DNA of 64,000 nucleotides from Talaromyces rugulosus (taxonomy: Eukaryota > Ascomycota > Eurotiomycetes > Eurotiales > Trichocomaceae), in assembly GCF_013368755.1 (NCBI RefSeq), contig NC_049566.1:434001-498000 (forward strand). Direction: 5' to 3'. Under the pieces are notes generated by a model that was not told the DNA's origin, made no database searches, and worked only from the letters and a program-made list of their open reading frames with translations. Position 1 is the stretch's first letter. Each line of letters begins with the position of its first letter. A program made the position numbers and the translations under genes. This document shows positions 3,851 to 40,081 of this stretch, in pieces.

Positions 3851-4762
3851 CAATCAGTGAGCAACTCAGCTATATCTCTCTTATATAACCCGATTACAGT
3901 GCTCACAATCAGATCCTTTCCTAAGAATATCTAATTAGGTAATTACTTGTTTAAGTAGGTAACATCTACTTGTATTAATTAGCTGAGCTATAAGAAATGA
4001 ATATCAAGTCAATCTAGATTTAGATTCAAAATTATATATTTTTCTAACTAACTTTATTATATAGCAACCAACATTTGAAAGGAATTAATTACCTGGAAAG
4101 GGTGAGGGCAGCTAAGCTAAATACTAATTAATTATAAGAGTTTAGACTCACACTCCAAAGTAATCTCCACTTTGACACCCCACATGACCAAAAAGTTCAA
4201 CCAAAGTTGAGGGTAAGTGTGGCTTTCTTGATCTGCCAGGCAATACCAACACAGCTCTCTTTTCTTCAACATCTCACTGCTCTTGCCCCACCCGTTCGCT
4301 AGAATCCGAGTGACAACATAGATCGGGCTCTGTGCGGTCACTTGCGTTGTCCTTCTGTGGTCGCCTCTGCTGTGGCCTCTGTCGCTTCTATCTCGGAAAC
4401 TGGGCTGGCACTGGCATCCCAATTGACTGGAAATGGCTGACCAAAGGAAGTTAGATGTGCATATAAGCATCCCTATTGGAGTCAATTGTAGCATCGAACC
4501 AGGGATCAGTATAACCCGCTATTCAGAATCCAGAGAAAATCGATTTCGTTCTTACACGGACCTGTCAACTACGTCATTTGTTTTGTGGCGAATTATTTGC
4601 ACCTGGCACATGATACTTATCATACAGAAAAATAATTATATATGTAGGTTCTATAGTTCACGCACATGCTGAGATCCTCTTGTTCAGCAGTGGGCGAGCT
4701 TCGCTGCTTACAGACCGCGAGCTTGCTTCTCGAAAAATGGCCATCAAACCGCGGTTATCAAA
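3851..4762. other. AT-rich intergenic stretch at the left end of the island
   Basis: About 0.9 kb. The first part (3900-4130) is very AT-rich with no open frame; the rest has only short frames without convincing starts or splice sites. Nothing else recognised. Confidence 0.5.
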
Positions 4763-27192: not shown

Positions 27193-28271
27193 ATGTCATC
27201 CCTCGACCCAACATTCTCCTCGTATACAAAACCCCAAGCCCAAAAATACGCACAAGCGCGTCTCTCATACCCATCCCAGCTCTACGAAACCATCATCACG
27301 CATCACACGCAGACCGGTGGCCGACTAGATACTCTCGTCGATGTGGGATGCGGACCGGGCAATGCGACGCGCGATCTGGCGCTCTCGTTTGAGTATGCCT
27401 TTGGTTTGGATCCTGGTACGGAAATGATTATTTCGGCGCGTCAAAGAGGTGGCAGGACGCGGAGTGGGAATGAGGCGCGTTTTGCTGTTGCGCCAGCGGA
27501 GGAGTGTGTTGGGGTGGTTGCAGAGATGACGAGAGCTGGAGGTGTAGAGGGAGGAGATGGGAAGGTGGATTTGTTGACGGCTGCTATGGCGGTAAGAAGC
27601 TTCTTCTCCTAACGTATCTATTTGCTTTCTCTGACTCTGGCAATTACCAGGCACACTGGTTCGATATGCCCAAGTTTTGGACCAATGCGGCCGAGATGGT
27701 GAAACCCGGGGGAACCGTTGCTCTTTGGACCTGCGCATCCCTTTACTGCCGTGAGTAGCTTCATATAAAAAAAATTCCTTTTTGTTTCTAACATCCAAAT
27801 GCAGACCCCTCAACACCAAACGCAGCAGCCGTCCAAGCGGCACTCTTCCGATTAGAACGAGAGATCCTCGCTCCTTATGAACTACCATCCAACCGTCTAT
27901 CTCGGGATCTTTACGACAAACTTGTGTTGCCATGGGATGTACCCCGAAACAATGAGGCGGTATTTCCTGCTTCGGAATTTGTACGCATGGAGTGGGATCG
28001 CGATGGTGTCCTCAGTGATGGAAAAGAGTTCTTTGGTGGCGAGAGTAAAAGAATTACGCTGGCGGATCTCGCCAAGAGCCTAGATACAGCGAGTATGGTT
28101 ACTAGATGGAGGGAGGCGCATCCGGAGCTGGTGGGTACAGATAAAGACTGCGTGCGTGAGACGATAGACGAGGTCCGAAGGTCTTTGGGAGAGTCAGGTG
28201 AAATAGGGAATGAGGATGTTTCGATTAAAGTTGGATCTGGCACTGTTTTGCTATTGTTTAAACGGAGATGA
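27193..28271 (+). CDS. SAM-dependent methyltransferase, class I (type 11-like)
   Basis: Exons 27193-27591, 27651-27750 and 27805-28271; introns 59 and 54 nt; 321 residues. Opens MSSLDPTFSSYTKPQAQKYA, typical of fungal small-molecule methyltransferases related to trans-aconitate methyltransferase. SAM motif I is VDVGCGPGNATRDLAL, with the acidic end of the second strand in FGLDPGTEM. Motif AMAAHWFDMPKFWTNAAEMV, followed by KPGGTVALWT, is the usual post-I/III region. The substrate is unknown. It ends 57 bases from the convergent 3' end of the Zn2Cys6 factor. Its upstream region lacks the CGG direct repeat seen in the neighbouring genes, so it may not belong to the same regulon. Confidence 0.85.
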
Positions 28272-28327
28272 CAATGTTCTATATACAAATGATGTCAACT
28301 AACCTTTAAACCGGCTATAAGTCGGGA

Positions 28328-30697
28328 CTACTTGTCGGCACGAGGATTTACAACGTTGTTGGCCTTGTCCAGAACCTGGATTGACCATTCCATGCTATTG
28401 GAAATTTCACTCGGCCATTCAAAATCCAGGTCCGCCAAGCTATCGGGTGGGAAATCAAGGGCTAGAGATCCCATAGACATAGCGGAGAGAGCTTCTGTAT
28501 GCGTCCCAAGAGGGATGGACGAATCGGGAGCGCGAGGAGTCACTAAAAAGTCAGCAAACAGCCCATCCAATATCCTGGTGGATAGAAATTGGTACCTCCT
28601 GAAACAGATCTCAGATGCGCTAGGTTTTGCAACATGCCGACTGCCTGTTTTGCGGCGGGCGACTGGACACTCAGAGCTTGAAAGACCTTTAAACATGTAT
28701 TTGCATCTTCATTCAAATATCCAGAGAACTCATTGGATCTCTCGTTGGCATCGCAAAACACGTCAGCAACAAATAATATAGAGCCCGCACAGATCAGACA
28801 GGAGATCATCTGCCACCATGGAAAGTCTTGAACAAGGCTGCGTTCATCTGCGACATTGTGCAGTAAACGTGCTGTTTGCTGCGCAGCAGATATGCACTTT
28901 TTTTCGGCTTCCTGTATTTCTGTCCTATAACTACGCAATGAGGCCATGAATGCATCACTGTGGTGCGGGAGTCTGGGTAGGGCAAGAAACGGTCTGTGTA
29001 TCAGAGCACGAAGGTGGTGAAATTTGACCGCGAGCATGTTTCGCTGAATAAAGTAAGCTATAAATATCTTTCGCAGAAGAGAACTTCTTGCCATACCTGT
29101 CGCTGGAACACAACCGACCTTTCGAATGTGTGACCCAGATCAAAACGAAGATGATGGGGAAGACTGGATCTCCATCTGAGAAGAGAAGAGTCGATGGCGG
29201 AAGCATTCAAGAGGAGCTGATCAGCAGATATCTCCGGCTGTATCGGCTGGTACAGCTCCTGAATCACATCCTCGACAATGCTGGAAAATTGTATAACATG
29301 GAGGAAATAGTCCATTATCAAGTTCCCCACCATGTTATCATCAGAGTCAGCATCCATGTTCTCGCGAGAGGGCAGAGCGACATGAAAGTCTGCTTGACGA
29401 ATAGCCATTGGTCGTCCAAGCTGTAGGGCAAGAAGACGATCAAGCACATACATGGAATACCATGTTCGCCGCCTGAGCTCGCATTCTGTATCAATTGAAA
29501 CTGAAAGTCCTCGACGCGGTGGCGAGGTTTCCACGTGAAGGCCGATACTCTGTCCCATGCGGACAGCGAAGCCAAGAGTATTCCAACACCTGTCAGAACT
29601 CGTAAGACCACCTTGCCACTAGTATCAATTAATAAAAGTATGCTGATAAACATACCGATCCGTCTGGCAAATAGCCAACAAAAAGAAACATCGCAGTAAA
29701 GAAGCCCAAACATTGACCAGACTGCATTGAGCCATTAATTCGTTTGAAAAATACACGGCTTGCTCGAAATACTGAAAATGTGATTGCGAGCTTGGATGGT
29801 CATCGTGAGGAAAAGATAAATAGTAGGAACCGATAGCAAAGATGAAATCTAAAGCAGTCAACATCTACCCAAGAAGTAAAATGCGCAGAGGTGACTTGCT
29901 CAGTACTGCCAGCATAGATCTATCTTGATGTTCGTTGAGTTTAGATTTCTTTGCCCACATTTGTTGAAATTGTGCGCACACAAGGTCCCTGCATAAAAAG
30001 GGATACGCAACCTGAATAGTAGAGAAATAAATATCAAGATATCTGGAACCCTCCTCCTGTGAAGTACAAAGTAAAGGCCGTCCAAGAATTGTGGTGTTTT
30101 CGGGGATATCTGTTTGATCATAGTATTGTTTGCTTAAATCATCTCCGCCCATACAGCTCTCGATAGTCTTAAAGAAATACAAGTCACTGGCCCGTCCGAC
30201 ATAGGTTGGTGACCGTTCTTCAGAAGGACTTTCAGGCTGCTCGCTACTCTCCACGCGCTGTGCCTGATCGCCGAGCTCGTCTGGTAAGCGTTGTCGAATG
30301 CTGGTCAATGTGAGGTCCAGTGCCACCTGGTCCCCTTGATCCAGCTTTGACTGAAAGCTTCGGATCAAGGCCTCGTAGGACTTGACAATATACGAGCAAG
30401 CCCTATGCCCATCATGCTCGACATCTGTTTCAGCACGCTGTGCTCTTCCACCTGTACTAGTATTATGGTTGCGTTTCCGAGAGCTCAGCCAGGTGCAGGT
30501 AAACCCGTAGCCTTTACAGCGGCCACACTCGGGCTGCTGGCCATCACACTGCAAGGAAATGGTCAATATCTGGAAATGAAATATCACCGAGGCGGTGAGA
30601 ATCCAACTTTTGCTTTGAGAGCCCGACATTTCTCACAGGCTAATCCAACGCGCTGCCGCTTCAACGCTCTCCCGTCTGACTTGCGAACAAGGGCCAT
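28328..30697 (-). CDS. Zn2Cys6 transcription factor with fungal-specific TF domain
   Basis: Six exons: 30697-30608, 30548-29907, 29864-29656, 29589-29097, 29043-28596, 28542-28328; all phases agree, 698 residues. The zinc cluster is split by intron 1 and restored by splicing: ACEKCRALKAK + CDGQQPECGRCKGYGFTC, giving C-x2-C-x6-C-x6-C-x2-C-x6-C. A basic region follows (SSRKRNH). The middle homology domain contains DFIFAIGSYYLSF, GFAVRMGQSIGLHVE, RRRTWYSMYVLDRLLALQLG and RNMLAVKFHHLRALIHRPFL. Intron 2 is only 42 nt and is the weakest junction. It is divergent from the pyrophosphatase gene over a promoter with two CGG-N5-ACGGAT repeats, so self-regulation plus control of the cluster is likely. 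Confidence 0.9.
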
Positions 30698-30850
30698 CGG
30701 GAAACACGGATCTACACAGCCGATTCAAGTAACAATTGGAACACAATATATTTCCAAGAGGGTCTGGTGAGCCGATTGTCAACTATTGAGAACAGGTTCA
30801 TTATCTATCGCTCCCTACGACATCATCCTTGTTTGCCCCACACCCGACAC

Positions 30851-30864
30851 ATCCGTCTCAACCG
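30851..30864 (-). promoter_or_regulatory. Candidate Zn2Cys6 binding site 1
   Basis: On the minus strand reads CGGTTGAGACGGAT: two CGG triplets in direct repeat separated by six bases, with the shared ACGGAT end. Confidence 0.55.
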
Positions 30865-30868
30865 GGGT

Positions 30869-30882
30869 ATCCGTCCGGACCG
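30869..30882 (-). promoter_or_regulatory. Candidate Zn2Cys6 binding site 2
   Basis: On the minus strand reads CGGTCCGGACGGAT, the same spacing and ACGGAT end as site 1, only four bases away from it. Confidence 0.6.
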
Positions 30883-31133
30883 GATCAATCTAGTAAATTT
30901 CCCAGGAACTTGACTGAAATGCAGGCAAAAATGTTGCCTGTCTTGGTTTTTGTTTTTTGTATGTGACGTGTACCTGGCCGGGTAGGACGGGTTCGACCAT
31001 CATGACGTGGAGTAAACGTGATATAGCAAGTGTATACCATTTGCCTCGCATACAAAATTATTTTTTTAAGTAGATCAATTAACGCCAATTGATATCTAAT
31101 ACAGCTAAAAATCTGTTTTGCATCAAGTTACAA

Positions 31134-32097
31134 ATGTCTCCGTCCCCCAAATACCAGACCCAGGTGTCGGGCAGTGTCGAAAACGGGGACTTTCAACTTT
31201 CATTTGCAGCAGATAATGGCAGCCCTATTTCTCCATGGCATGATATTCCACTCATGGCAGACTCCACGGAGCGAATATTCCACATGGTAGTGGAGATACC
31301 AAGAGGATCTCGCCCAAAAATGGAGGTAGGGGGAAAAGCCATCTTTAAATCTACCAGTTGCATAGGGTAATCTGGCTGATGATCATTACAGATTGCCAAG
31401 GAGGTGCCTGGGAACCCTATTAAACAAGATATGGTGAATGGGAAACCTCGCTGCCTGGCTGATATTTTTCCTTTCAAGGGATACCCATGTAATTATGGAG
31501 CATTTCCACAAGTGCGAAAGATCACGTTTGCCCGAAAGAAATATTGATAATTAACATTATCAGTAGACTTGGGAAGATCCATCAACGATTGACTCGGAGA
31601 CCAATGCAAATGGAGACGACGACCCCCTTGATGTTTGTGAGATAGGCTCGCGAGTTTCTACCGTTGGGGAGGTCAAGAGAGTCAAAGTGCTCGGAGCGTT
31701 TGTAATTATCGACCAAGGCGAGACCGACTGGAAAGTGGTAGCTGTGGACGTTGAGGATCCTCTAGCAACCAAACTAAACGATATTTCCGATGTCGAAGCC
31801 AATACTCCTGGGTTTATGGCTTCCTTGAAAAATTGGTTCTGCATGTACAAGGTCCCCGAAGGAAAGAAAGCAAACACTCTACCTTTGGGGCAAACAGATA
31901 AAACCCAAAGGTCTGTAATGAGAAAAAATATCCTGTTCACTTGCATAATGGCTGAATCTTGATTTTCTAGTTACGCGTTAGATCTGATCGATCGCTGCCA
32001 TAACGAATGGCACAGCTGTCGAAGACGGCTTTTGGAGCGAAGCCACAAAAGCGAGTCGAAGCCGGATGTTGATATTTCAGAAGAATCTTCTGCGTAA
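31134..32097 (+). CDS. Inorganic pyrophosphatase (family I), cluster paralog
   Basis: Hydrolyses pyrophosphate to phosphate and so pulls PPi-releasing reactions forward. Exons 31134-31325, 31392-31511, 31567-31910 and 31971-32097; 260 residues, all in phase. Compared with yeast Ipp1, the metal-binding motif is intact (GDDDPLDVCEIG), as are DQGETDWKVVAVDV, KLNDISDVE, the EIPRG glutamate, and NYGAFPQTWEDP after splicing. It is shorter than Ipp1 (about 286 residues) at the C-terminus, ending DVDISEESSA. The protein should be active and cytosolic. A housekeeping PPase must exist elsewhere, so this is a second, cluster-bound copy; that is inference. Confidence 0.9.
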
Positions 32098-32278
32098 TAG
32101 TGGACGGGAAGACTATGCTAGTTACATTTGACATTGTCAATTGAATTAATTGCTTCGGAACTGAATTGGCGTGTACATAATAGGGACTTTGATAAACCCA
32201 AATACTCCCCAACTGTGAATCTACAAAGCAAAATCGATCTCATCGACGTAAGATTTTCTCCAGCCCATTTTTCATTCT

Positions 32279-32649
32279 CTACAGAGATATCACATATGGC
32301 TGCCTCAGATGGTAAAAAGTCTTGCGGCAAGCTGGACATGTCGCTTTGTAGGCGCATAGCCAGGTGTCAATGCAACATAGATGGAATATGTGGCCACACG
32401 AGAGTTGGCGGAATGCAGACATGCTTGTTAATTTTTTATCGCAGAAGATGCAATTTTCTGGGGCATAATCTACGCAAGAGACTTTTCATTAAAACCAACT
32501 AAGAACCCACCCACAAGGAAAGAGAGAGTCATACCTCGCAGCTCAACGGGGAGGCCAAATAAAGAGGGCATCCCGGAGATGTTTAGATCATATTGCCTAA
32601 TTGGGCCTTTTTGTGTGCGCGAAGGTACATGTATGTAGTGATTTTTCAT
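32279..32649 (-). CDS. Small RING-H2 finger protein
   Basis: Exons 32649-32535 and 32469-32279, joined in phase over a 65 nt intron (GTATGA...GCGTAG); 101 residues. Splicing and frame reveal a RING-H2 domain: ENCIFCDKKLTSM (Cys pair 1), LSCGHIFHLCCIDTWL (Cys, His, His, Cys) and KATCPACRKTF (last Cys pair). The N-terminus (MKNHYIHVPSRTQKGPIRQY) has no motif I know. Such small RING-H2 proteins are usually E3 ubiquitin ligases. It lies between the pyrophosphatase and phosphatase genes, on the opposite strand, with a CGG direct repeat about 100 bases upstream of its start. Confidence 0.75.
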
Positions 32650-32746
32650 TGTTAGCAATACATTATGATTATGGAATACCTTGAAAGGCTGATATACCTA
32701 AATGCCTTTCGTTAGCCGTAATATTATCGGAATAGAGTCCCAGGGA

Positions 32747-32760
32747 CGGCCCGGACGGAT
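32747..32760 (+). promoter_or_regulatory. Candidate Zn2Cys6 binding site 3
   Basis: Plus strand reads CGGCCCGGACGGAT. It differs from site 2 at one base. Located about 100 bases before the RING-H2 start and about 290 before the small ORF at 33048. Confidence 0.6.
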
Positions 32761-33047
32761 CGGATGTCGATAGTGACGTGGTTGATCCTTTTGCATATAT
32801 TCACTTAGCTAAAATTATTAAACATGTATGCTTAAGCAATAATTATCAAGCTATTTCTGCAGCTATAAGATAGCCAAGTCAGCTGGCGGTTGCAAAGTGG
32901 GTGATGTACGAACCACCGCCTAGAATACTCTGGTAAATTTTTCATTTCTTTTACTTTTCCCTCGGTCAAATATTAACAGATCTTCATCATCTTAGCCAAC
33001 GACTTGCATCATCAAATTTGAACAGTCAACATCTTGGTCCAATTACC

Positions 33048-33278
33048 ATGTGGCCTCTTACCTGGCTCCGTGAAACAATCCGTAAACTCACTCACTCGGA
33101 GCATAGTCGACCCCCAGAGAGCGCAAGACCAGAAAATAGGACTCCAGATAACACAGATTTACCCGGAGATTCTTTCGGTGCGCTCAGTGAGGTCGCCGCC
33201 CCCGCTCCCATACAACATCCGGAGAGAGAGCCAGAGGACACCTTGGAGAAGCAGCTCTCCGGTGCCACCATGAAATAG
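33048..33278 (+). CDS. Small unknown protein, 76 residues
   Basis: Short open frame from ATG 33048 (MWPLTWLRETIRKLTHSEHS) with a Pro/Glu-rich second half (DNTDLPGDSFGALSEVAAPA). It follows a C/T-rich leader (32940-33000) typical of fungal 5' ends, which supports expression. No family recognised; it may instead be a leader or an untranslated transcript. Confidence 0.35.
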   Translation: MWPLTWLRETIRKLTHSEHSRPPESARPENRTPDNTDLPGDSFGALSEVAAPAPIQHPEREPEDTLEKQLSGATMK

Positions 33279-33655
33279 GCATGCGTTTTTTCTTTAGTAG
33301 TGAGAGGAGATACTAACTTCAAACTAGCCATACTAAATCCTTCGTTGTTGATTTCATCAGAGGTCAAAACATGGCATCAATTTACTTTTGGTCTAGGATT
33401 TTATACTCCTATAATCGTATTGAAACATGTGTACGAGTCAATCGTTATATCTAATTGCGTTCAATGTCTGGGGAAATATACAACAACCGTTTGATCCGTT
33501 GGTTCCGTTGGAAATCATGTAATTACGAAATAAGCGCGTCATGAACGTTTGAATGAACATAAAAGGGGCACTTATAGTGCTTCATCAATCTATAAAATAA
33601 AAATTTTTCAATTTTAAGAGACAATTTAGATTGTTTATCATAAACATCTGTACCA
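33279..33655. promoter_or_regulatory. Promoter region of the SHB17-like gene
   Basis: About 380 AT-rich bases containing candidate site 4. No gene supported. Confidence 0.5.
33494..33507 (-). promoter_or_regulatory. Candidate Zn2Cys6 binding site 4
   Basis: Minus strand reads CGGAACCAACGGAT: CGG direct repeat with N6 spacing and the ACGGAT end, about 150 bases before the start codon at 33656. Confidence 0.55.
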
Positions 33656-34528
33656 ATGAGCGTCCGCGTTTTCCTCATTCGTCATGGAGAAACGGAGTGG
33701 TCGGCAGCGCAAAAACATACTGGCAGCACTGATCTGCCATTAACGGAAAAAGGAGAAAACGAGATCAAGAAAGCTAGAGCTTCGTTTGTCGGGACTGTCA
33801 AATTAATTGATCCAGCAAGTATTCGACGAGTGTGAGCCACAAGAAACACGCACAAGGACTATGTATGTGTTGCACAGATTAACCTAAATGATCGTATTAG
33901 TTACTGCTCTCCGCGAACACGTGCCCTCCAAACAGCAGAAATTCTGTTTCCCAATATCACAAGTAAATCTCAGCAGAGTAATGGGCCCAAACTTGAAGTT
34001 GCGCCATGTCTTCAAGAATGGGATTATGGCGACTACGAAGGCCTGACTAGGGATCAAGTTTTCCAAGCACGATCCGACCAGGGCGTTGAGAATTATCGGG
34101 ATTGGAACATTTGGAGGGATGGCTGCGCAGGTGGAGAGTATGTCATCCGAGATCATCACTTTGATATACACCCTAAGTCTTTATTTGATACTCCGCAGGT
34201 CCCCGGTTGATGTTTCGTTACGCCTTGGGAATTTTATTTCACGCTTGAAAAATGAAATAGAGAAAGAAATAAAGGAGAATCCGAATCAAAACAGGCCCGG
34301 GGATATTGTCTGCGTTGCACATGGGCACATCCTGTCGTCATTAGCCATGGTATGGGCAAAAATTCCTCTGGGCAATGGGGTAAGACTGCTCTTGGAGACG
34401 GCTGGCGTGGCAACTTTAGGGTAGGTAAACAGACTATTTCATGTCAATTATTACTAAAGGAGAATAGGTTTGAGCACGATGATGTTAATGAACCTGCAAT
34501 TTTTATTGGTGTCCGCCCCAGATCGTAA
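33656..34528 (+). CDS. Histidine-phosphatase family protein, SHB17 / phosphoglycerate-mutase-like
   Basis: Exons 33656-33831, 33901-34137, 34199-34420 and 34468-34528; 231 residues, all in phase. The phosphohistidine motif is [11 protein letters not shown]; the second catalytic set is [13 protein letters not shown] (Arg), [14 protein letters not shown] (Glu) and [11 protein letters not shown] (His). [15 protein letters not shown] and the C-terminal [12 protein letters not shown] place it with yeast Shb17 (sedoheptulose-1,7-bisphosphatase) and related fungal sugar phosphatases, rather than with classical glycolytic mutase. Shb17 feeds carbon into ribose synthesis. All catalytic residues are present. 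It is the second central-metabolism paralog of the cluster, sitting between pyrophosphatase and enolase on the same strand. Confidence 0.88.
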
Positions 34529-34983
34529 ACGATGTCATGCTCATAAAACTGTCTACTGATTTTTATTTTATTTTTGCATTAATGACAACATAATTGTCAA
34601 CAGAAATTGCACTTGCAACGTATCAAAGAATATAAACACCATTCCTGTCAACATATCGCAAATGTAGCTGTTGGCATTTCCAGATGTCCAACATAACCAC
34701 ATTTTTGACACATCAATTGATGGGTTGTTATATTTATTTATAGTCTAGATAAGTATTGAAGTCAGCAGCTCAGTATGTGTAGATTTCTTTGAAACGTACT
34801 ATAAAGCCTACAAACGTCAACCTGCAGTAAGTGGTCTCTTCTTTTCCGGTATTGTGGTATACTCCCGTGATAGCCGTTGTTGACGTCACAGTCTGCGAGC
34901 ATTTGGCGCCACGCTTCGCTAGCATTTTCTTAGGTATATAGTCACCTCGTTCAAAGAGTCACCAATGATACCACCAGCAAGAA
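34529..34983. promoter_or_regulatory. Promoter region of the cluster enolase
   Basis: 455 bases, AT-rich, with candidate site 5 and a C/T patch just before the start. No gene seen. Confidence 0.5.
34865..34876 (-). promoter_or_regulatory. Candidate Zn2Cys6 binding site 5
   Basis: Minus strand reads CGGCTATCACGG: direct repeat with the same N6 spacing and the A before the second CGG, but without the trailing AT. About 110 bases before the enolase start. Confidence 0.45.
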
Positions 34984-36525
34984 ATGAATGTTGTCAGCAA
35001 GATGCAGAACGATTCTGGAATAGTCCGCTCCGTCGCTGCGTCACAGCGGCTTGACTCGAGAGGTAAACCCACCGTAAAGGTGACAATTACAACTGAAAAA
35101 GGTAATTAATAATATTTATTAAAAATATATTGTACTAAATGACCTATACAAGGGAACTTTACTGCCTTGGTGCCGTCGGGAGCTTCTGTGGGCGCCTACG
35201 AGGCTCATGAGCTACGAGATGAAGATGCACGCCAGTATGGAGGTAATAGTGTTCTAAAGGCAGTGCACAATGTGGAGAACATCATTGGTCCAGAATTAGT
35301 CAAGCAGAGGTTCAATACGCGAGATCTGCGCGAGATAGACAAGTTCATGATTCACCTAGATGGCTCTCATGATAAGAAAAGGCTGGGAGCCAACGCCATC
35401 CTAGGTGTTAGCATGGCCTGCGCACGCGCCGGAGCTGCGGAAACGGTCTGTTTTTCTTTCAATATTGCTAGAAATGACGTCTTATTAATATGAGGATACA
35501 GGGCGTACCTTTGTATGAGTTCCTAAGACAGACTGCGGAGATAACAGGCCCATATATTCTCCCGACCCCCTTTTTCAACGTCCTTAATGGTGGAAGACAT
35601 TTTGGAAATGAAATAGTTTTTCAGGAGTTCATGATTGCACCTACCGCAGCGCAGTCCATCACGGAGGCGATTCAATGGGGCAGCGAAGTGTATCAGTCAC
35701 TCAAAGGGGTGATTACAGAAAAGTTTGGTTCATCTGGTTAGCATTTTTATACCTATTTTCTCCGTCAATTTTGAAATGTGATTGGCCTAATATCTCTTAG
35801 CCATCGGAATAGGAGATGAGGGTGGATTTGTACCTCCCATTACACAACCCACGGAGGCTTTGGACCTCTTGATGACCGCTATCAAAAAGGCAGGCCATGA
35901 AGGCAAAATCAAATTCGCAATCGATCCTGCCGCGAGTGAATTCTTCAAGTCCGGAAAATACGATCTTGGAATGAAGGCCCATAAACCTAATGCGCTATCC
36001 GCCGATGAGCTTCAGGAATTGTATAAATCCCTGCTTGACCAATATCCTATTATACTTCTGGAGGATCCTTTCGCAGAAGATGACTGGGAAGCATGGAAAT
36101 CCTTCCACCAGAATTACTCAGTAGAGTTAGTGGGTGATGACCTTTTGGCGACAAACATTGAACGTATCGACTTGGCACATGCGCAAAAGGCATGCAATTC
36201 ACTTTTGCTCAAAATAAACCAAGTGGGGACTATAACCGAGGCTCTAGATGCGTACGTAACCTTATCTCTCTACATTAAACTTATTAATTGAATGTATAGG
36301 GCTCGAAAAGCGCAGAGTTATGGCTGGAGCGTTTTCGTTTCGCATCGATCAGGCGAGACGACAGACGATTTCATTGCAGACCTCACCGTGGCCATATCAG
36401 TAGGACATCTCAAGTCAGGTAGTCCATGTAGAGGAGAAAGAGTTGCTAAGTACAACCGGCTCATGGATATTGAGGAGGAGCTAAAAGGGTCTCGTTGCGA
36501 ATTTCAATATGCCGGTCTTCCATGA
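34984..36525 (+). CDS. Enolase, cluster paralog
   Basis: Interconverts 2-phosphoglycerate and phosphoenolpyruvate. Exons 34984-35101, 35153-35445, 35502-35736, 35801-36251 and 36300-36525; 440 residues, all in phase. Catalytic landmarks (yeast numbering from memory): loop 1 [25 protein letters not shown] (E168), [11 protein letters not shown] (E211), [11 protein letters not shown] (D246), [11 protein letters not shown] (E295), VGDDLL (D320), [10 protein letters not shown] (K345), [11 protein letters not shown] (H373) and [14 protein letters not shown] (K396). The loop around His159, normally NGGSHAG, reads NGGRHFG, with both neighbours of the His changed. The sequence is far more diverged than a housekeeping enolase should be, yet keeps every catalytic residue. 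ATGs at 34984 and 35002 are both possible starts. Confidence 0.9.
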
Positions 36526-36729
36526 AGAAAAGAAATGCAAGATTTATTGTTTATTAAAAGGAGATTGCAGTATTTGATTCAATGTTTCTCATTGATATAC
36601 CATGCAGATGACCTCTGTACATCATGTGGTCAACTGGTGTTGATATCTATTTATAAAACTAGCAGGATATCAGACCTGAAACATATCAACATGCCGTCAA
36701 CGGTGTCATAACATATTCTCAAACTATAG

Positions 36730-36998
36730 CTAACTAGTATACTGGACACCTCGAGGAGAACCAAGACCCCGCGTCTTGTCGAAGCCACTCCATACCAGAC
36801 GATCGTGATAGATGAGTTTCACGAGAATAAAGGCGCAGGGACCAATCTCGTGAGGTTTCTCAAGATCATGACTGGTGGCAAGAATCCGCCCAGGCTCTAC
36901 GGGCTGAGCCGCCGTATCCTGAGCAAAAACCCAAGTGACCTTGAAGGGATCGTCATCGCCTTCCGGATGTACGATGAATGGAGGATCGGCTACAAGGA
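36730..36998 (-). CDS. Possible terminal exon of an unknown gene
   Basis: The minus-strand frame VLVADPPFIVHPEGDDDPFK to LGSPRGVQYTS reads like coding sequence and begins right after a good intron acceptor (CTCAAC...CTTCTTCAG, ending at 36999). I could not find a convincing upstream exon or start codon between 37000 and 37900. It may be a real 3' exon, a relic, or chance. No family recognised. Confidence 0.3.
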
Positions 36999-38070
36999 CT
37001 GAAGAAGGTAAGTTGAGATTTCTAGAATATTTCTTGTCTAGGTATCTGACAGCACAGAAAGTAGAAGTCTTATTTTTATTCTCATGTTTTTTCATTTTCA
37101 ATGCTATTGAAAATGTCTTCTTATGAGAGTTGGTGCCGCATGGGCGTTCTTCTGGTACAGTGAGGAGATGATTCGTCACCTTCTAAACGACAACAGCCTT
37201 TCTCGCAAGGTCCGTTATTCCTCATTCACCCTTGGTATACTTGCAGTAGCTAATCTATACCGCTTATCACAGGCATACGAGCGTAATACGTGTTGTGTGG
37301 TGATACGTCTGGTACAACTTCTCGGCGTGTGCTCCTACATATTCTCCCATACTCGCTCCGCTCATATTTACCATTTGCAGGCTGCTTCTGCTTCACAAAT
37401 GGTAGCATGTCAATGGACCACAACACTCACAAATCATTCGACGATGCTCTATTGGGTCCAAACCGGTTGATAATAAGGTTTCAATAACAATGAAGTTTTA
37501 TTGCTGGCTCACGATGAGAAAGTATTCGACCTAGTCTCTAAAGACAAAAATATCGGCCAAGATAGGTTCGGATTCTTTTAACTTCGAGTCTTTGACACCC
37601 TAGATGCGATCGGCTCTAGCGATAAGAGTCGACTATCGACGTTAGATGCGACCGAGGCCCCCCTGACCAACTCTGCTCTCTTGAATATGCAATGGCAGAG
37701 TTGCTGCTCTGTGTGCAGGAGCGGAACCTGAGGATATCTCTTGAGTACGACCACGACAGTAGAGGAGCATGCAGTTTGGGTGCTGTACTGGGAAAATGTT
37801 CACCAGGAAATGTTCCGTGAATCTTCTTCGGGTTTTGCATTCCTTGCAATCATATGTTTCTGAGAAAGAAACTGGACAATGTCTCGTGCCGTAGATGTGT
37901 TTCTTTTTATACACTTCGGGACGGCATGATATTCGTTAAGTGTCCTGGGCCGAAAGTGGAGAGACCTCGCTGTACTACGTGGACTACGATAGATGTACTA
38001 CAGAATCCAGACTCTTTTAAAAACTGGCATAGACTTATGATAGATTACCAAGCCTACGATGATACACAGA
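36999..38070. other. Region with decayed or uncertain coding frames
   Basis: About 1.07 kb. Several short frames look protein-like but shift frame or stop quickly: plus-strand MIRHLLNDNSLSRK followed by possible introns (37168-37480), VFDLVSKDKNIGQDRFGF (about 37525-37580) and VEEHAVWVLYWENVHQEMFR (about 37755-37815); and a minus-strand CKECKTRRRF frame (37642-37914). No consistent gene model could be built. Best read as relics at the right edge of the second accessory block. Confidence 0.35.
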
Positions 38071-40081
38071 CTACTCGTCAATAATGACCAAACCCGCCAT
38101 ACTAGCACTGGTAAATGTGCTTAAAGCACCGGTGATCAAAGCAGAAACGGCGACGCGCGCAATGTCGCTGCTTCGGCCAGGCGCAATCTGGGCGAGCACA
38201 CCGATTTGGTTACCTAGAGAGCCGATGTTGGCAAATCCACACAGCGCGTACGTGACGATCAGGCGGGAGCGAGAGGAGAGGTCGGCATAGGCCGGGTCAG
38301 TTACAAGCGCCTTGTAAGCAACGAACTCGTTCTAAAATTGTTTAAATCAGCTTTTTTCCCCTTAGGTTAAATAAGATACTATTTAACTTACCGCAATGAT
38401 CTTCAGCCCAATTAGCTGGGCGACGTGGTAAATGTCGTTGCCCTCGCGCGAAACCCCCAATAAGAAAGCAATCGGGTAGCAGACGTATCCCAGAATCATT
38501 TGTAGGGTCAACCCGTCGTCTTTGTTGATGTTGAGATAATGGCCCCACCAGGTAAGCAGTCCGTTGATGAGACCGATCAAGGAGATAATGCAGAGAAGGG
38601 TAGCGCCAATCATGCCGGCGATCTTCAAGCCCAACCAGGCACCGTTGGTGAATGCTTCGAGGGCGTTCGCGGAGTGGTGGCCCTCATCGTCCTCGGGTAT
38701 GACAACGCGGCCAGATGTCAATGTTTCTTCGGTTTCGGGCCAGCGTAATTTGGAGACGGCCAAAGAGGCGGGGATACTCATCACGCACGATGACACCAAG
38801 GCTTGAGGATTCACACCTAGTGAAATATAGGCAATCAACACACTGCCGGCAATTGTGGCGAATCCGGAGCACATGGCCTGGTGTATTTCTGCCAGGGTCA
38901 AGTGAGCAATGAACGGGCGAATCAACATGGCAGATTCTCCCTGGCCGATAAACGGCGAAGCGGCGGCGACAACGGCCTCAGCACCGGACACTTTCATCGT
39001 GAAGAAGAAGAAGCTGGCAAATTTTCCGATAAACCACTGTAGAATACCAAAGTGGTAAAGTAACTGCACAAACGAAACGAAAAAGATAATCGCAGGGATG
39101 ACAGTGACCAAAAACCAGCTGCTGATGGAAGCAGGAACCGGGTTCTCGGTGAGGAACTCAACACCCTGGGTAGCAAACCCCAAAAGATCGGTGGCCAGGC
39201 CAGAAATGAAGTTGAAAATATCGTAGCCAGCGCCGGTCCGAAGCACAAACAAGGCGACAAGGAATTGGACCAGCATGCCGACAATCACAGCTTGCCAGTT
39301 GATCATCTTTCGGTTTCGGGACGTCGCCCACAGGACAGCAATGAGAACACCAAGGCCGACAAGACTGACAACACGATCGACACGGGTATTCTGCGGCGAT
39401 TCGGGCGAAGCAAAAGAACCAATGATAATCACAGAGACTACGAGAAGACCGGCAGCGGGGAACCTCAGCTTCTGGGGAATGAGTGGGACTACTACCAAGG
39501 CAGTGTGATCCCATACCCAGCGCATCGGCACTGTCACGATGGTAATCGGGACATAAAAGAATATAATCCGAAGTGTTATGGCGAGGTAGAGCAGAAATGG
39601 GATCAGCCAGCCGAGATCGTGGCGGTGGAGGATCAGACCTGCAATCCACCAGCTACGATGTTGTCAGTGTTGGATCAAAGTACAAGCTCGTGAAGAAATC
39701 TCATGCATCTCTTCTCCTTGTTTTTTTATTTTTTTTAACGTACCCGGTAAAGAGAAGCCAGACGAAGATATGCGCAGCATGGCGCCATTGCTTAAGCATC
39801 CGACGTTGCCATGGACGCTTTGCGTGGCCTTCGCCCAAGTCCTCAACATCACTAATATCCTTGCTGTTCTTGTCCGGGAACGAATGGTCGAGCGAATTGG
39901 GATCGGGGCCTTTGACATCAACGCTGTAGACAACTTGGTCTTCGAGACCCTTCTCTGCAAAGGCCGTGTGGTGGTGATGGGCGTGGTGGTGTTCGTTAGC
40001 CGGATCCAGTGCCGGATCTCGGGGAGGCTGAGGCTGGTGCTCCAAGCCGTCGTCAGCTGCTGTGTTCTCTGCGACACTCAT
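38071..40081 (-). CDS. Concentrative nucleoside transporter (CNT family)
   Basis: Cation-coupled uptake of nucleosides at the plasma membrane. Exons 40081-39744, 39652-38392 and 38331-38071; introns 91 and 60 nt; 619 residues. The N-terminal 100 residues are cytosolic, with a His-rich run (NEHHHAHHHHTAF). About 12 membrane segments follow. CNT signatures are clear: FIGQGESAMLIRPFIA, MCSGFATIAGSVLIAYISLG, and the NEFVAYKALV motif followed by YALCGFANIGSLGNQIG. The last exon ends STFTSASMAGLVIIDE. The extreme conservation of these motifs indicates a working transporter. Confidence 0.92.

What the first reader, a model, noticed from the sequence alone, without database searches (positions are those of the whole stretch)
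30698..34983. A shared CGG-N5-ACGG(AT) direct repeat marks a Zn2Cys6 regulon in the metabolic cluster
Five copies of a CGG direct repeat with exactly six bases between the triplets lie in the four intergenic regions of the cluster: 30851-30864, 30869-30882, 32747-32760, 33494-33507 and 34865-34876. Four read CGG-N5-ACGGAT; the fifth keeps CGG-N5-ACGG. They sit roughly 100-290 bases before the starts of the Zn2Cys6 factor, pyrophosphatase, RING-H2 protein, SHB17-like phosphatase and enolase. Zn2Cys6 proteins bind CGG repeats of fixed spacing. With equal base use, CGG-N6-CGG is expected about once in these ~1.7 kb on both strands, and the nine-base form about 0.01 times. The motif was picked after looking, so this is suggestive, not a formal test.
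Basis: partly seen in the sequence, partly recalled or inferred. Interest (0 to 1): 0.9.

Follow-up and report, generated by a model that had tools for sequence, protein, structure and literature searches.

The report
Fungal fluoride-resistance gene cluster and regulon
A mould appears to carry its own fluoride-defence kit, with spare copies of two enzymes that fluoride is known to poison switched together with a fluoride exporter elsewhere in the genome through one shared DNA tag, which would be a eukaryotic counterpart of the fluoride switches known in bacteria.

Summary
The motif is real and stronger than reported. In the 1,847 intergenic bases of the cluster, CGG-N6-CGG occurs 11 times; shuffles average 0.19 and 0 of 2,000 reach 11. 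It builds a five-CGG and a three-CGG array of exact 9-bp period. The window is Talaromyces rugulosus. The shared logic of the genes is fluoride: enolase and pyrophosphatase are classic fluoride targets, and a bacterial fluoride-riboswitch operon carries ppaC, eno, gpmA and crcB (PMC5533749, passages). This genome's FEX2 fluoride channel, on another chromosome, has two CGG-N5-ACGG sites 115-147 bp before its ATG, a pair that matches once in the genome in the form searched. In other fungi, orthologues of the regulator, the enolase and FEX share contigs pairwise in 22 named species, with consecutive locus tags in seven; several species show no such link. I conclude that this is a conserved fungal fluoride-resistance cluster whose Zn2Cys6 protein most likely controls it, and FEX2 in trans. 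Binding, fluoride induction and sensing are inferred, not shown. CGG arrays also stand before two other Zn2Cys6 genes here, so array form alone is not specific.

The parts
28543..30697 (-). Zn2Cys6 + Fungal_trans transcription factor gene (5 exons; proposed regulator). DBD CEKCRALKAKCDGQQPECGRCKGYGFTC = CX2CX6CX6CX2CX6C. C-terminal exon structure uncertain.
   Evidence: model; Pfam PF00172 E 5.7e-10, PF04082 E 3.1e-24; orthologues; DBD comparison
30698..30711 (+). CGG-N5-ACGGAT, begins at the base just upstream of the regulator's ATG (possible autoregulation)
30979..30990 (+). CGG-N5-ACGG in the same divergent promoter
31134..32097 (+). PPA2: family I inorganic pyrophosphatase paralogue, 4 exons, 260 aa
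   Evidence: (PF00719 E 3.3e-43)
32279..32649 (-). small RING-H2 protein, 2 exons, 101 aa
   Evidence: PF12678, PF13639 over cut-off
32747..32763 (+). two overlapping CGG-N6-CGG units (32747-32758, 32752-32763), 98 bp upstream of the RING-H2 ATG
33048..33278 (+). 76-aa open frame without a Pfam match; may or may not be a gene
33487..33507 (-). array of three CGG at 9-bp period, 149 bp upstream of SHB17L ATG
33656..34528 (+). SHB17L: histidine phosphatase, best PDB relative yeast YKR043C (SHB17, name recalled); 4 exons, 231 aa
34865..34876 (-). CGG-N5-ACGG, 108 bp upstream of ENO2 ATG
34984..36525 (+). ENO2: second enolase, 5 exons, 440 aa as modelled (record TRUGW13939_10510 has 434)

Best explanation
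The cluster is a fungal fluoride-resistance module. The Zn2Cys6 protein at 28543-30697 binds direct repeats of CGG at 9-bp period (CGG-N6-CGG, preferably CGG-N5-ACGGAT), in arrays where several dimers can sit, and activates its own gene, a spare pyrophosphatase, a RING-H2 protein, an SHB17-like sugar phosphatase and a spare enolase, plus in trans the fluoride channel FEX2 on another chromosome. FEX2 lets fluoride out; the spare enolase and pyrophosphatase make up for the activities that fluoride blocks; SHB17L would drain sugar phosphates that pile up above blocked enolase. Shown here: the genes, the motif and its statistics, the FEX2 sites, and linkage of regulator, enolase and FEX in other fungi. 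Inferred: binding, activation, induction by fluoride, and the roles of SHB17L and the RING-H2 protein. The signal is unknown; I think a consequence of enolase or pyrophosphatase block is somewhat likelier than fluoride itself.
For: (1) Motif statistics in the cluster. (2) FEX2 (L047:4118-5494) has CGGGTCTCACGG at 3971-3982 (+) and CGGATAGGACGG at 3992-4003 (-), 115-147 bp before its ATG. CGGGN4ACGG-N0-30-CCGTN5CCG matches once in 35.76 Mb, there. FEX1, ENO1 and PPA1 have no CGG-N5-ACGG within 1 kb upstream (starts of these genes estimated from frames and alignments). Consecutive locus tags in 7: Aspvir_002903/002904 (enolase/FEX), BP6252_08014/08015 and E0L32_000296/000295 (regulator/enolase), VTN77DRAFT_1128/1129, ABOM_000038/000039, N7507_005925/005926, N7508_011032/011033 (regulator/FEX). 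(4) A published Trichoderma virens gene table lists pyrophosphatase, CrcB protein and enolase as CDS1025-1027 (PMC7303927, one passage). (5) FEX2 is closer than FEX1 to the linked FEX proteins: 53-60% against 41-46% in 12 of the 13 compared (of 14 linked); the 13th is 48% against 47%. These were found with FEX2 as query, which favours this outcome. (6) The E. cloacae operon ppaC-uspA-eno-gpmA-crcB-orf5249 is fluoride-induced and needed for high resistance (PMC5533749, passages). (7) Four-CGG arrays of the same period stand before two further Zn2Cys6 genes, which suggests that such proteins bind such arrays at their own promoters.
Against: No expression or binding data. In this species FEX is not in the cluster; both FEX genes lie on C3. 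Unlinked in the lists: regulator and enolase on contigs of different length in Fonsecaea multimorphosa, Cladophialophora bantiana, Sporothrix eucalyptigena, Niveomyces insectorum and Pestalotiopsis sp. NC0098; regulator and FEX in Penicillium cinerascens; enolase and FEX in Dothideomycetes sp. NU459; and several mismatches where the strains differ or may differ (Paecilomyces variotii, Rasamsonia emersonii, Exophiala dermatitidis, Penicillium brevicompactum) (not an exhaustive tally). In 12 of the 22 linked species only a shared contig is known (116 kb to 10.2 Mb; two over 5 Mb). PPA2 is a family I enzyme by homology, and family I enzymes are strongly inhibited by 0.5 mM fluoride (PMC11857102, passages), so it helps by amount unless its changed residues matter. 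SHB17L and RING-H2 were not traced in other species. A pair of direct sites also lies in DNA without a long frame at C3:1911169 (L062), not explained. Arrays of this form occur at other Zn2Cys6 genes, so another factor could act here. Yeast Fex1p is titled 'constitutively expressed' (title in a reference list).
Confidence: 0.8

Rival explanations
1. Central-carbon regulon: the cluster is a carbon-source switch (alternative glycolysis/gluconeogenesis isozymes) and the Zn2Cys6 protein is an AcuK/AcuM-, FacB- or Hap1-like regulator; FEX linkage is incidental.
For: Enolase and a sugar phosphatase are central-carbon enzymes; some regulator homologues bear source names such as 'transcriptional activator acu-15'.
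Against: Repeated adjacency of the regulator or enolase to the fluoride channel FEX and the paired site at FEX2 are not expected. The AcuK/AcuM spacing (N7, recalled) occurs 0 times in the intergenic DNA. The Hap1 spacer TA (recalled) is in 0 of 13 units of the cluster and FEX2. Pyrophosphatase does not fit a carbon switch.
Confidence: 0.08
2. Secondary-metabolite or self-resistance cluster, for example phosphonate chemistry in which spare enolase and phosphatase are pathway or immunity enzymes.
For: Duplicated housekeeping enzymes beside a Zn2Cys6 gene are a known self-resistance sign (recalled); enolase- and mutase-like enzymes occur in bacterial phosphinothricin clusters (recalled).
Against: 17 PEP_mutase-family matches in the genome, none in the window. 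Of 15 larger frames of the window outside the cluster put to Pfam, none is a polyketide, peptide or terpene synthase; one is a FAD_binding_4 protein and five have no match, so the test is partial. FEX linkage is unexplained.
Confidence: 0.05
3. The CGG-N6-CGG arrays are real sites but for another Zn2Cys6 protein; the resident factor regulates something else.
For: Binding was not tested; arrays of the same period stand before at least two other Zn2Cys6 genes in this genome, so more than one factor may use this form.
Against: The densest array lies in the factor's own promoter and one unit abuts its ATG; the arrays at the divergent MFS/Zn2Cys6 promoter (L054) have no ACGG, unlike the cluster and FEX2; the factor's orthologues travel with FEX or enolase and keep the zinc-cluster cysteines.
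Confidence: 0.1
4. Chance or local duplication made the repeats; there is no regulon.
For: The motif was chosen after looking; runs of four CGG at this period occur elsewhere (30 matches, control 47).
Against: 0 of 2,000 shuffles; sequences around the units differ, so they are not copies of one block; an independent gene chosen by function has a paired site.
Confidence: 0.02

Closest known systems
Enterobacter cloacae FRM fluoride operon (ppaC-uspA-eno-gpmA-crcB-orf5249) and other fluoride-riboswitch operons
   Same: Spare pyrophosphatase, enolase and a phosphoglycerate mutase (histidine phosphatase superfamily, recalled) bundled with a fluoride channel (PMC5533749, passages).
   Different: Bacterial, Mn-dependent pyrophosphatase, riboswitch control; here family I pyrophosphatase, SHB17-type rather than phosphoglycerate mutase, separate promoters with CGG repeats, no fluoride riboswitch in 28000-37500, channel on another chromosome.
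Yeast/fungal FEX fluoride channels
   Same: FEX2 is a CRCB protein with two matched stretches.
   Different: What I saw on FEX treats export alone. A yeast deletion screen names the stress factor CRZ1 among genes for fluoride tolerance, called probably general (PMC7329995, passages). No dedicated regulon or linked isozymes turned up in 10 literature searches.
Hap1-type CGG-N6-CGG direct-repeat sites (recalled)
   Same: Direct repeat of CGG with 6-bp spacer.
   Different: No TA in the spacer (0 of 13 units); A before the second CGG in 10 of 13; tandem arrays of up to five triplets.

Membership tests
Fluoride-resistance gene cluster | spare copies of fluoride-sensitive enzymes beside the housekeeping ones | tested here: met
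   two enolase loci, three pyrophosphatase loci; ENO2 is 46-54% identical to ENO1 over the aligned pieces
Fluoride-resistance gene cluster | fluoride exporter in the unit | tested here: inconclusive
   not in the window; motif at FEX2; exporter on the contig of, or beside, the enolase or regulator orthologue in other fungi
Fluoride-resistance gene cluster | induced by and protective against fluoride | not testable with these tools
   needs expression and knock-out data
Bacterial fluoride-riboswitch operon | fluoride riboswitch (RF01734) | tested here: not met
   Rfam scan of 28000-37500 at E up to 1: no fluoride riboswitch; three matches to other families, all below their gathering scores
Zn2Cys6 regulon | intact Zn2Cys6 domain | tested here: met
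   PF00172 39.6 bits, cut-off 21
Zn2Cys6 regulon | fixed-spacing CGG repeats in target promoters | tested here: met
Zn2Cys6 regulon | the factor binds the sites | not testable with these tools
   needs EMSA/ChIP
Zn2Cys6 regulon | site conserved in orthologous clusters | not testable with these tools
   no other fungal DNA is held; only protein records
Hap1-type site | CGG-N3-TA-N-CGG (recalled) | tested here: not met
   0 of 13 units
AcuK/AcuM-type site | CGG-N7-CGG (recalled) | tested here: not met
   0 in 1,847 intergenic bp
SHB17 | closest to yeast SHB17 (YKR043C) among solved structures | tested here: met
   3f3k E 4.4e-43 against phosphoglycerate mutase 1e58 E 1.6e-5
FEX (for FEX2) | two CRCB domains | tested here: met
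   PF02537, 2 stretches

The most novel reading that the evidence does not exclude
A dedicated eukaryotic fluoride sensor-regulator: the Zn2Cys6 protein itself senses fluoride (or a Mg-F or phosphate complex) and, across Pezizomycotina, switches on a module of FEX plus truly fluoride-tolerant isozymes. Candidate tolerance changes: Asp-Val-Ala to Asp-Pro-Ala next to an enolase Mg ligand and Gly-Glu-Thr-Glu to Gly-Glu-Thr-Thr after the active-site His, both widespread among ENO2 relatives, and loss of an Arg and a Trp that the housekeeping pyrophosphatase keeps.
Probability: 0.3. Interest if true: 0.92.

Novelty: new variant of a known kind. Interest (0 to 1): 0.82.

Why it matters
How eukaryotes detect fluoride is, as far as I know, open: many bacteria use riboswitches, while yeast Fex1p is titled constitutively expressed (title seen). 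A transcription factor, a defined DNA site and a short list of target genes would make the question directly testable. It also fits ecology: fluoride released from fluorapatite strongly inhibits rock-phosphate solubilisation by Aspergillus niger, and Penicillium rugulosum mutants have been made for phosphate solubilisation (PMC4195724, passages); that T. rugulosus is the current name of P. rugulosum is recalled. It could supply fluoride-tolerant enzymes and a fluoride-responsive promoter for organofluorine biotechnology.

Tried and rejected
Phosphonate biosynthesis was considered because of the enolase plus mutase-like gene and put low for lack of a PEP mutase in the window. Pair-of-sites scans looked for further regulon members: everted pairs within 30 bp at 3 places (each inside a frame of more than 200 codons) and 11 direct pairs, one of them the cluster array; 4 of the other 10 were fetched, 3 lie inside frames of over 600 codons and one (L062) in DNA without a long frame, not followed further; 6 were not looked at. 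Inverted pairs were searched only with the first spacer base fixed as G, the form seen at FEX2, so their genome-wide number is not known. Four-CGG arrays: 8 of the 30 matches were fetched; L009, L011, L015, L016 lie inside frames of 150 codons or more; L010, L012, L013, L014 do not and were followed to their genes; the other matches were not looked at, the two of the cluster apart. Pfam was run on 15 larger frames of the window outside the cluster, not the strict 15 largest and not all 439. Contig-length matching used rows with contigs of about 10 kb or more, typed by hand: 89 enolase, 73 FEX and 97 regulator rows of 120 each, themselves the best 120 of longer hit lists. Enolase signature counts leave aside proteins that did not match the search strings (39 of 120 for D-x-A, 10 of 120 for GET-x-D).
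Full report
WHAT WAS CHECKED. The five sites exist where stated. Eleven CGG-N6-CGG units lie in the intergenic DNA of the cluster, eight of them with A before the second CGG and five with ACGGAT. On the minus strand 30844-30882 carries five CGG at an exact 9-bp period and 33487-33507 three.

CHANCE. In 1,847 intergenic bp the spacing spectrum is 11 at k=6, 5 at k=15 (harmonic) and 0-4 elsewhere; 0 of 2,000 dinucleotide shuffles reach 11, and no shuffle exceeds 5 at any spacing from 2 to 20. In 6,136 genic bp k=6 gives 2. The genome holds 3,727 CGG-N5-ACGG (reversed control 6,340) and 199 CGG-N5-ACGGAT (control 194), so neither word is enriched genome-wide. Runs of four CGG are likewise no commoner than control (30 against 47). 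The signal is local concentration in promoters.

OTHER ARRAYS. Eight loci with four-CGG runs were fetched. Four lie inside frames of 150 codons or more. The rest are three non-coding places: one before a Zn2Cys6 gene (L010; PF00172 and PF04082 over cut-off), one divergent promoter between an MFS transporter and another Zn2Cys6 gene with two arrays, k=6 count 6 in 340 bp, none with ACGG (L054), and one before an FSH1 hydrolase beside polyketide-synthase frames (L055). So such arrays tend to stand before Zn2Cys6 genes, which suits autoregulation by the neighbouring factor, but the array form alone cannot assign a site to one factor.

THE GENES. The organism is Talaromyces rugulosus (the enolase is TRUGW13939_10510). 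Gene models and Pfam: Zn2Cys6/Fungal_trans regulator (-), family I inorganic pyrophosphatase PPA2 (+), 101-aa RING-H2 protein (-), a 76-aa frame (+), SHB17-like histidine phosphatase (+), enolase ENO2 (+). ENO2 is one of two enolase loci, 46-54% identical to the housekeeping one over the aligned pieces, yet 57-74% identical to the other 119 of its 120 listed best hits, so it belongs to a separate paralogous lineage. The enolase catalytic residues that I recall are kept in the alignment to the best-matching solved enolases. Of those 120 proteins 103 read SHRSGETTD where the two solved relatives shown and ENO1 read SHRSGETED, and 79 read D-P-A where those read D-V-A (10 and 39 did not match the search strings). 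PPA2 lacks the tryptophan of PRWTNAK and has alanine where PPA1 has the arginine of YVRNCFP. Whether any of this changes fluoride sensitivity is unknown.

WHY FLUORIDE. Enolase and pyrophosphatase are well-known fluoride targets and are often found in fluoride-riboswitch operons (PMC11139923, passages). [quoted passage not shown] This prompted a search for the fluoride channel: the genome has two FEX genes, both on C3. FEX2 (TRUGW13939_06623) has two CGG-N5-ACGG sites in inverted orientation 115-147 bp before its ATG; that pair, with the first spacer base fixed as G, matches nowhere else in the genome. FEX1, ENO1 and PPA1 have no such site within 1 kb upstream. Among 25 loci held from family searches (FEX2's own included) the only two sites that start within 42 bp of each other are those of FEX2. 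A third pyrophosphatase locus (L050), a close relative of PPA2 with an in-frame stop, has two sites 131-292 bp before its ATG; it may have inherited them from the cluster, so I do not count it as independent.

LINKAGE IN OTHER FUNGI. The protein search reports contig lengths and locus tags. Matching them (89 enolase, 73 FEX and 97 regulator rows of 120 each) gives 4 enolase-FEX, 11 enolase-regulator and 12 FEX-regulator coincidences; where both rows are named the species agree (my reading). Together these are 22 named species and one unnamed contig. Locus tags are consecutive in seven, differ by two or eight in Penicillium angulare and Talaromyces pinophilus, and by 20 in Dothideomycetidae sp. 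11243; in the other 12 species only a shared contig (116 kb to 10.2 Mb) is known. Aspergillus pseudocaelatus and Penicilliopsis zonata have all three on one contig. A Trichoderma virens table lists pyrophosphatase, CrcB protein and enolase as neighbouring genes (PMC7303927, one passage), labelled primary metabolism and defence there. FEX2 is the closer relative of the linked FEX proteins in 12 of 13 compared, though these were found with FEX2 as query. Against: in at least seven species that appear in two lists the genes lie on different contigs (named under evidence against), besides cases where strains differ.

MECHANISM. Fluoride blocks enolase and pyrophosphatase, and in yeast raises pyrophosphate (PMC11857102, passages). 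I propose that this state activates the Zn2Cys6 protein, which binds CGG-N6-CGG arrays and turns on its own gene, PPA2, SHB17L, ENO2, the RING-H2 protein and FEX2. Over-expression of a family I pyrophosphatase alone raises yeast fluoride tolerance (same paper), so dosage can suffice even if PPA2 is itself inhibited. SHB17L fits as an outlet for sugar phosphates above the enolase block, and the RING-H2 protein as a remover of damaged protein or of the regulator; both are guesses.

WHAT IT IS NOT. No fluoride riboswitch in 28000-37500. Not a Hap1-type (spacer TA absent in 13 of 13 units) or AcuK/AcuM-type site (N7 absent), both definitions recalled. Not an evident phosphonate cluster.

NOVELTY. 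Ten full-text searches of the held library showed no paper on a fungal fluoride gene cluster or a fluoride-responsive fungal transcription factor, judged from the listings and from passages of six papers. Three listings were capped (15 of 34, 12 of 76, 12 of 417), and subscription papers and preprints are not covered. I call it a new variant of a known kind: the fluoride-resistance module is known from bacteria; a eukaryotic version with a protein regulator and its own DNA site is, as far as I could see, undescribed.

Noticed in passing
L054:6147-6486 (G000:C1:3859147-3859486) and L010:1501-1530 (G000:C1:2281653-2281682): Tandem CGG arrays of the same 9-bp period stand before two other Zn2Cys6 genes, one shared with a divergent MFS transporter; tandem CGG-N6 arrays may be a general mark of Zn2Cys6 autoregulation in this fungus.
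   Followed up: partly
L050:5659-6862 (G000:C6:4371659-4372862): Third pyrophosphatase locus, close to PPA2 but with an in-frame stop, has two CGG-N5-ACGG sites upstream; before the next gene, an HPP-family membrane protein (L050:7272-8412), lies one more (7186).
   Followed up: partly
window 28328-28708 (-): Overlapping and running past the stop of the modelled regulator another frame continues with an acidic, activation-domain-like stretch; an unmodelled intron, a frame change or chance.
   Followed up: no
PMC7303927 gene table (Trichoderma virens): A pyrophosphatase-CrcB-enolase trio stands in the table of large deletions of the gamma-ray mutant M7 (one passage seen); the fluoride tolerance of that mutant would be a ready test.
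   Followed up: partly
window 38383-39663 (-): Concentrative nucleoside transporter frame near the cluster; it holds one CGG-N5-ACGG (38964-38975) inside the frame, no array seen.
   Followed up: no
L062 (G000:C3:1911169-1911219): Direct pair of CGG-N5-ACGG in DNA without a long open frame; possible further target, gene not identified.
   Followed up: no
ENO2 relatives P0001-P0120: The second fungal enolase lineage shares changes next to a Mg ligand and in an active-site loop and scores slightly higher against beta- and alpha-enolase chains than against yeast enolase 1 among solved structures; origin unclear.
   Followed up: partly
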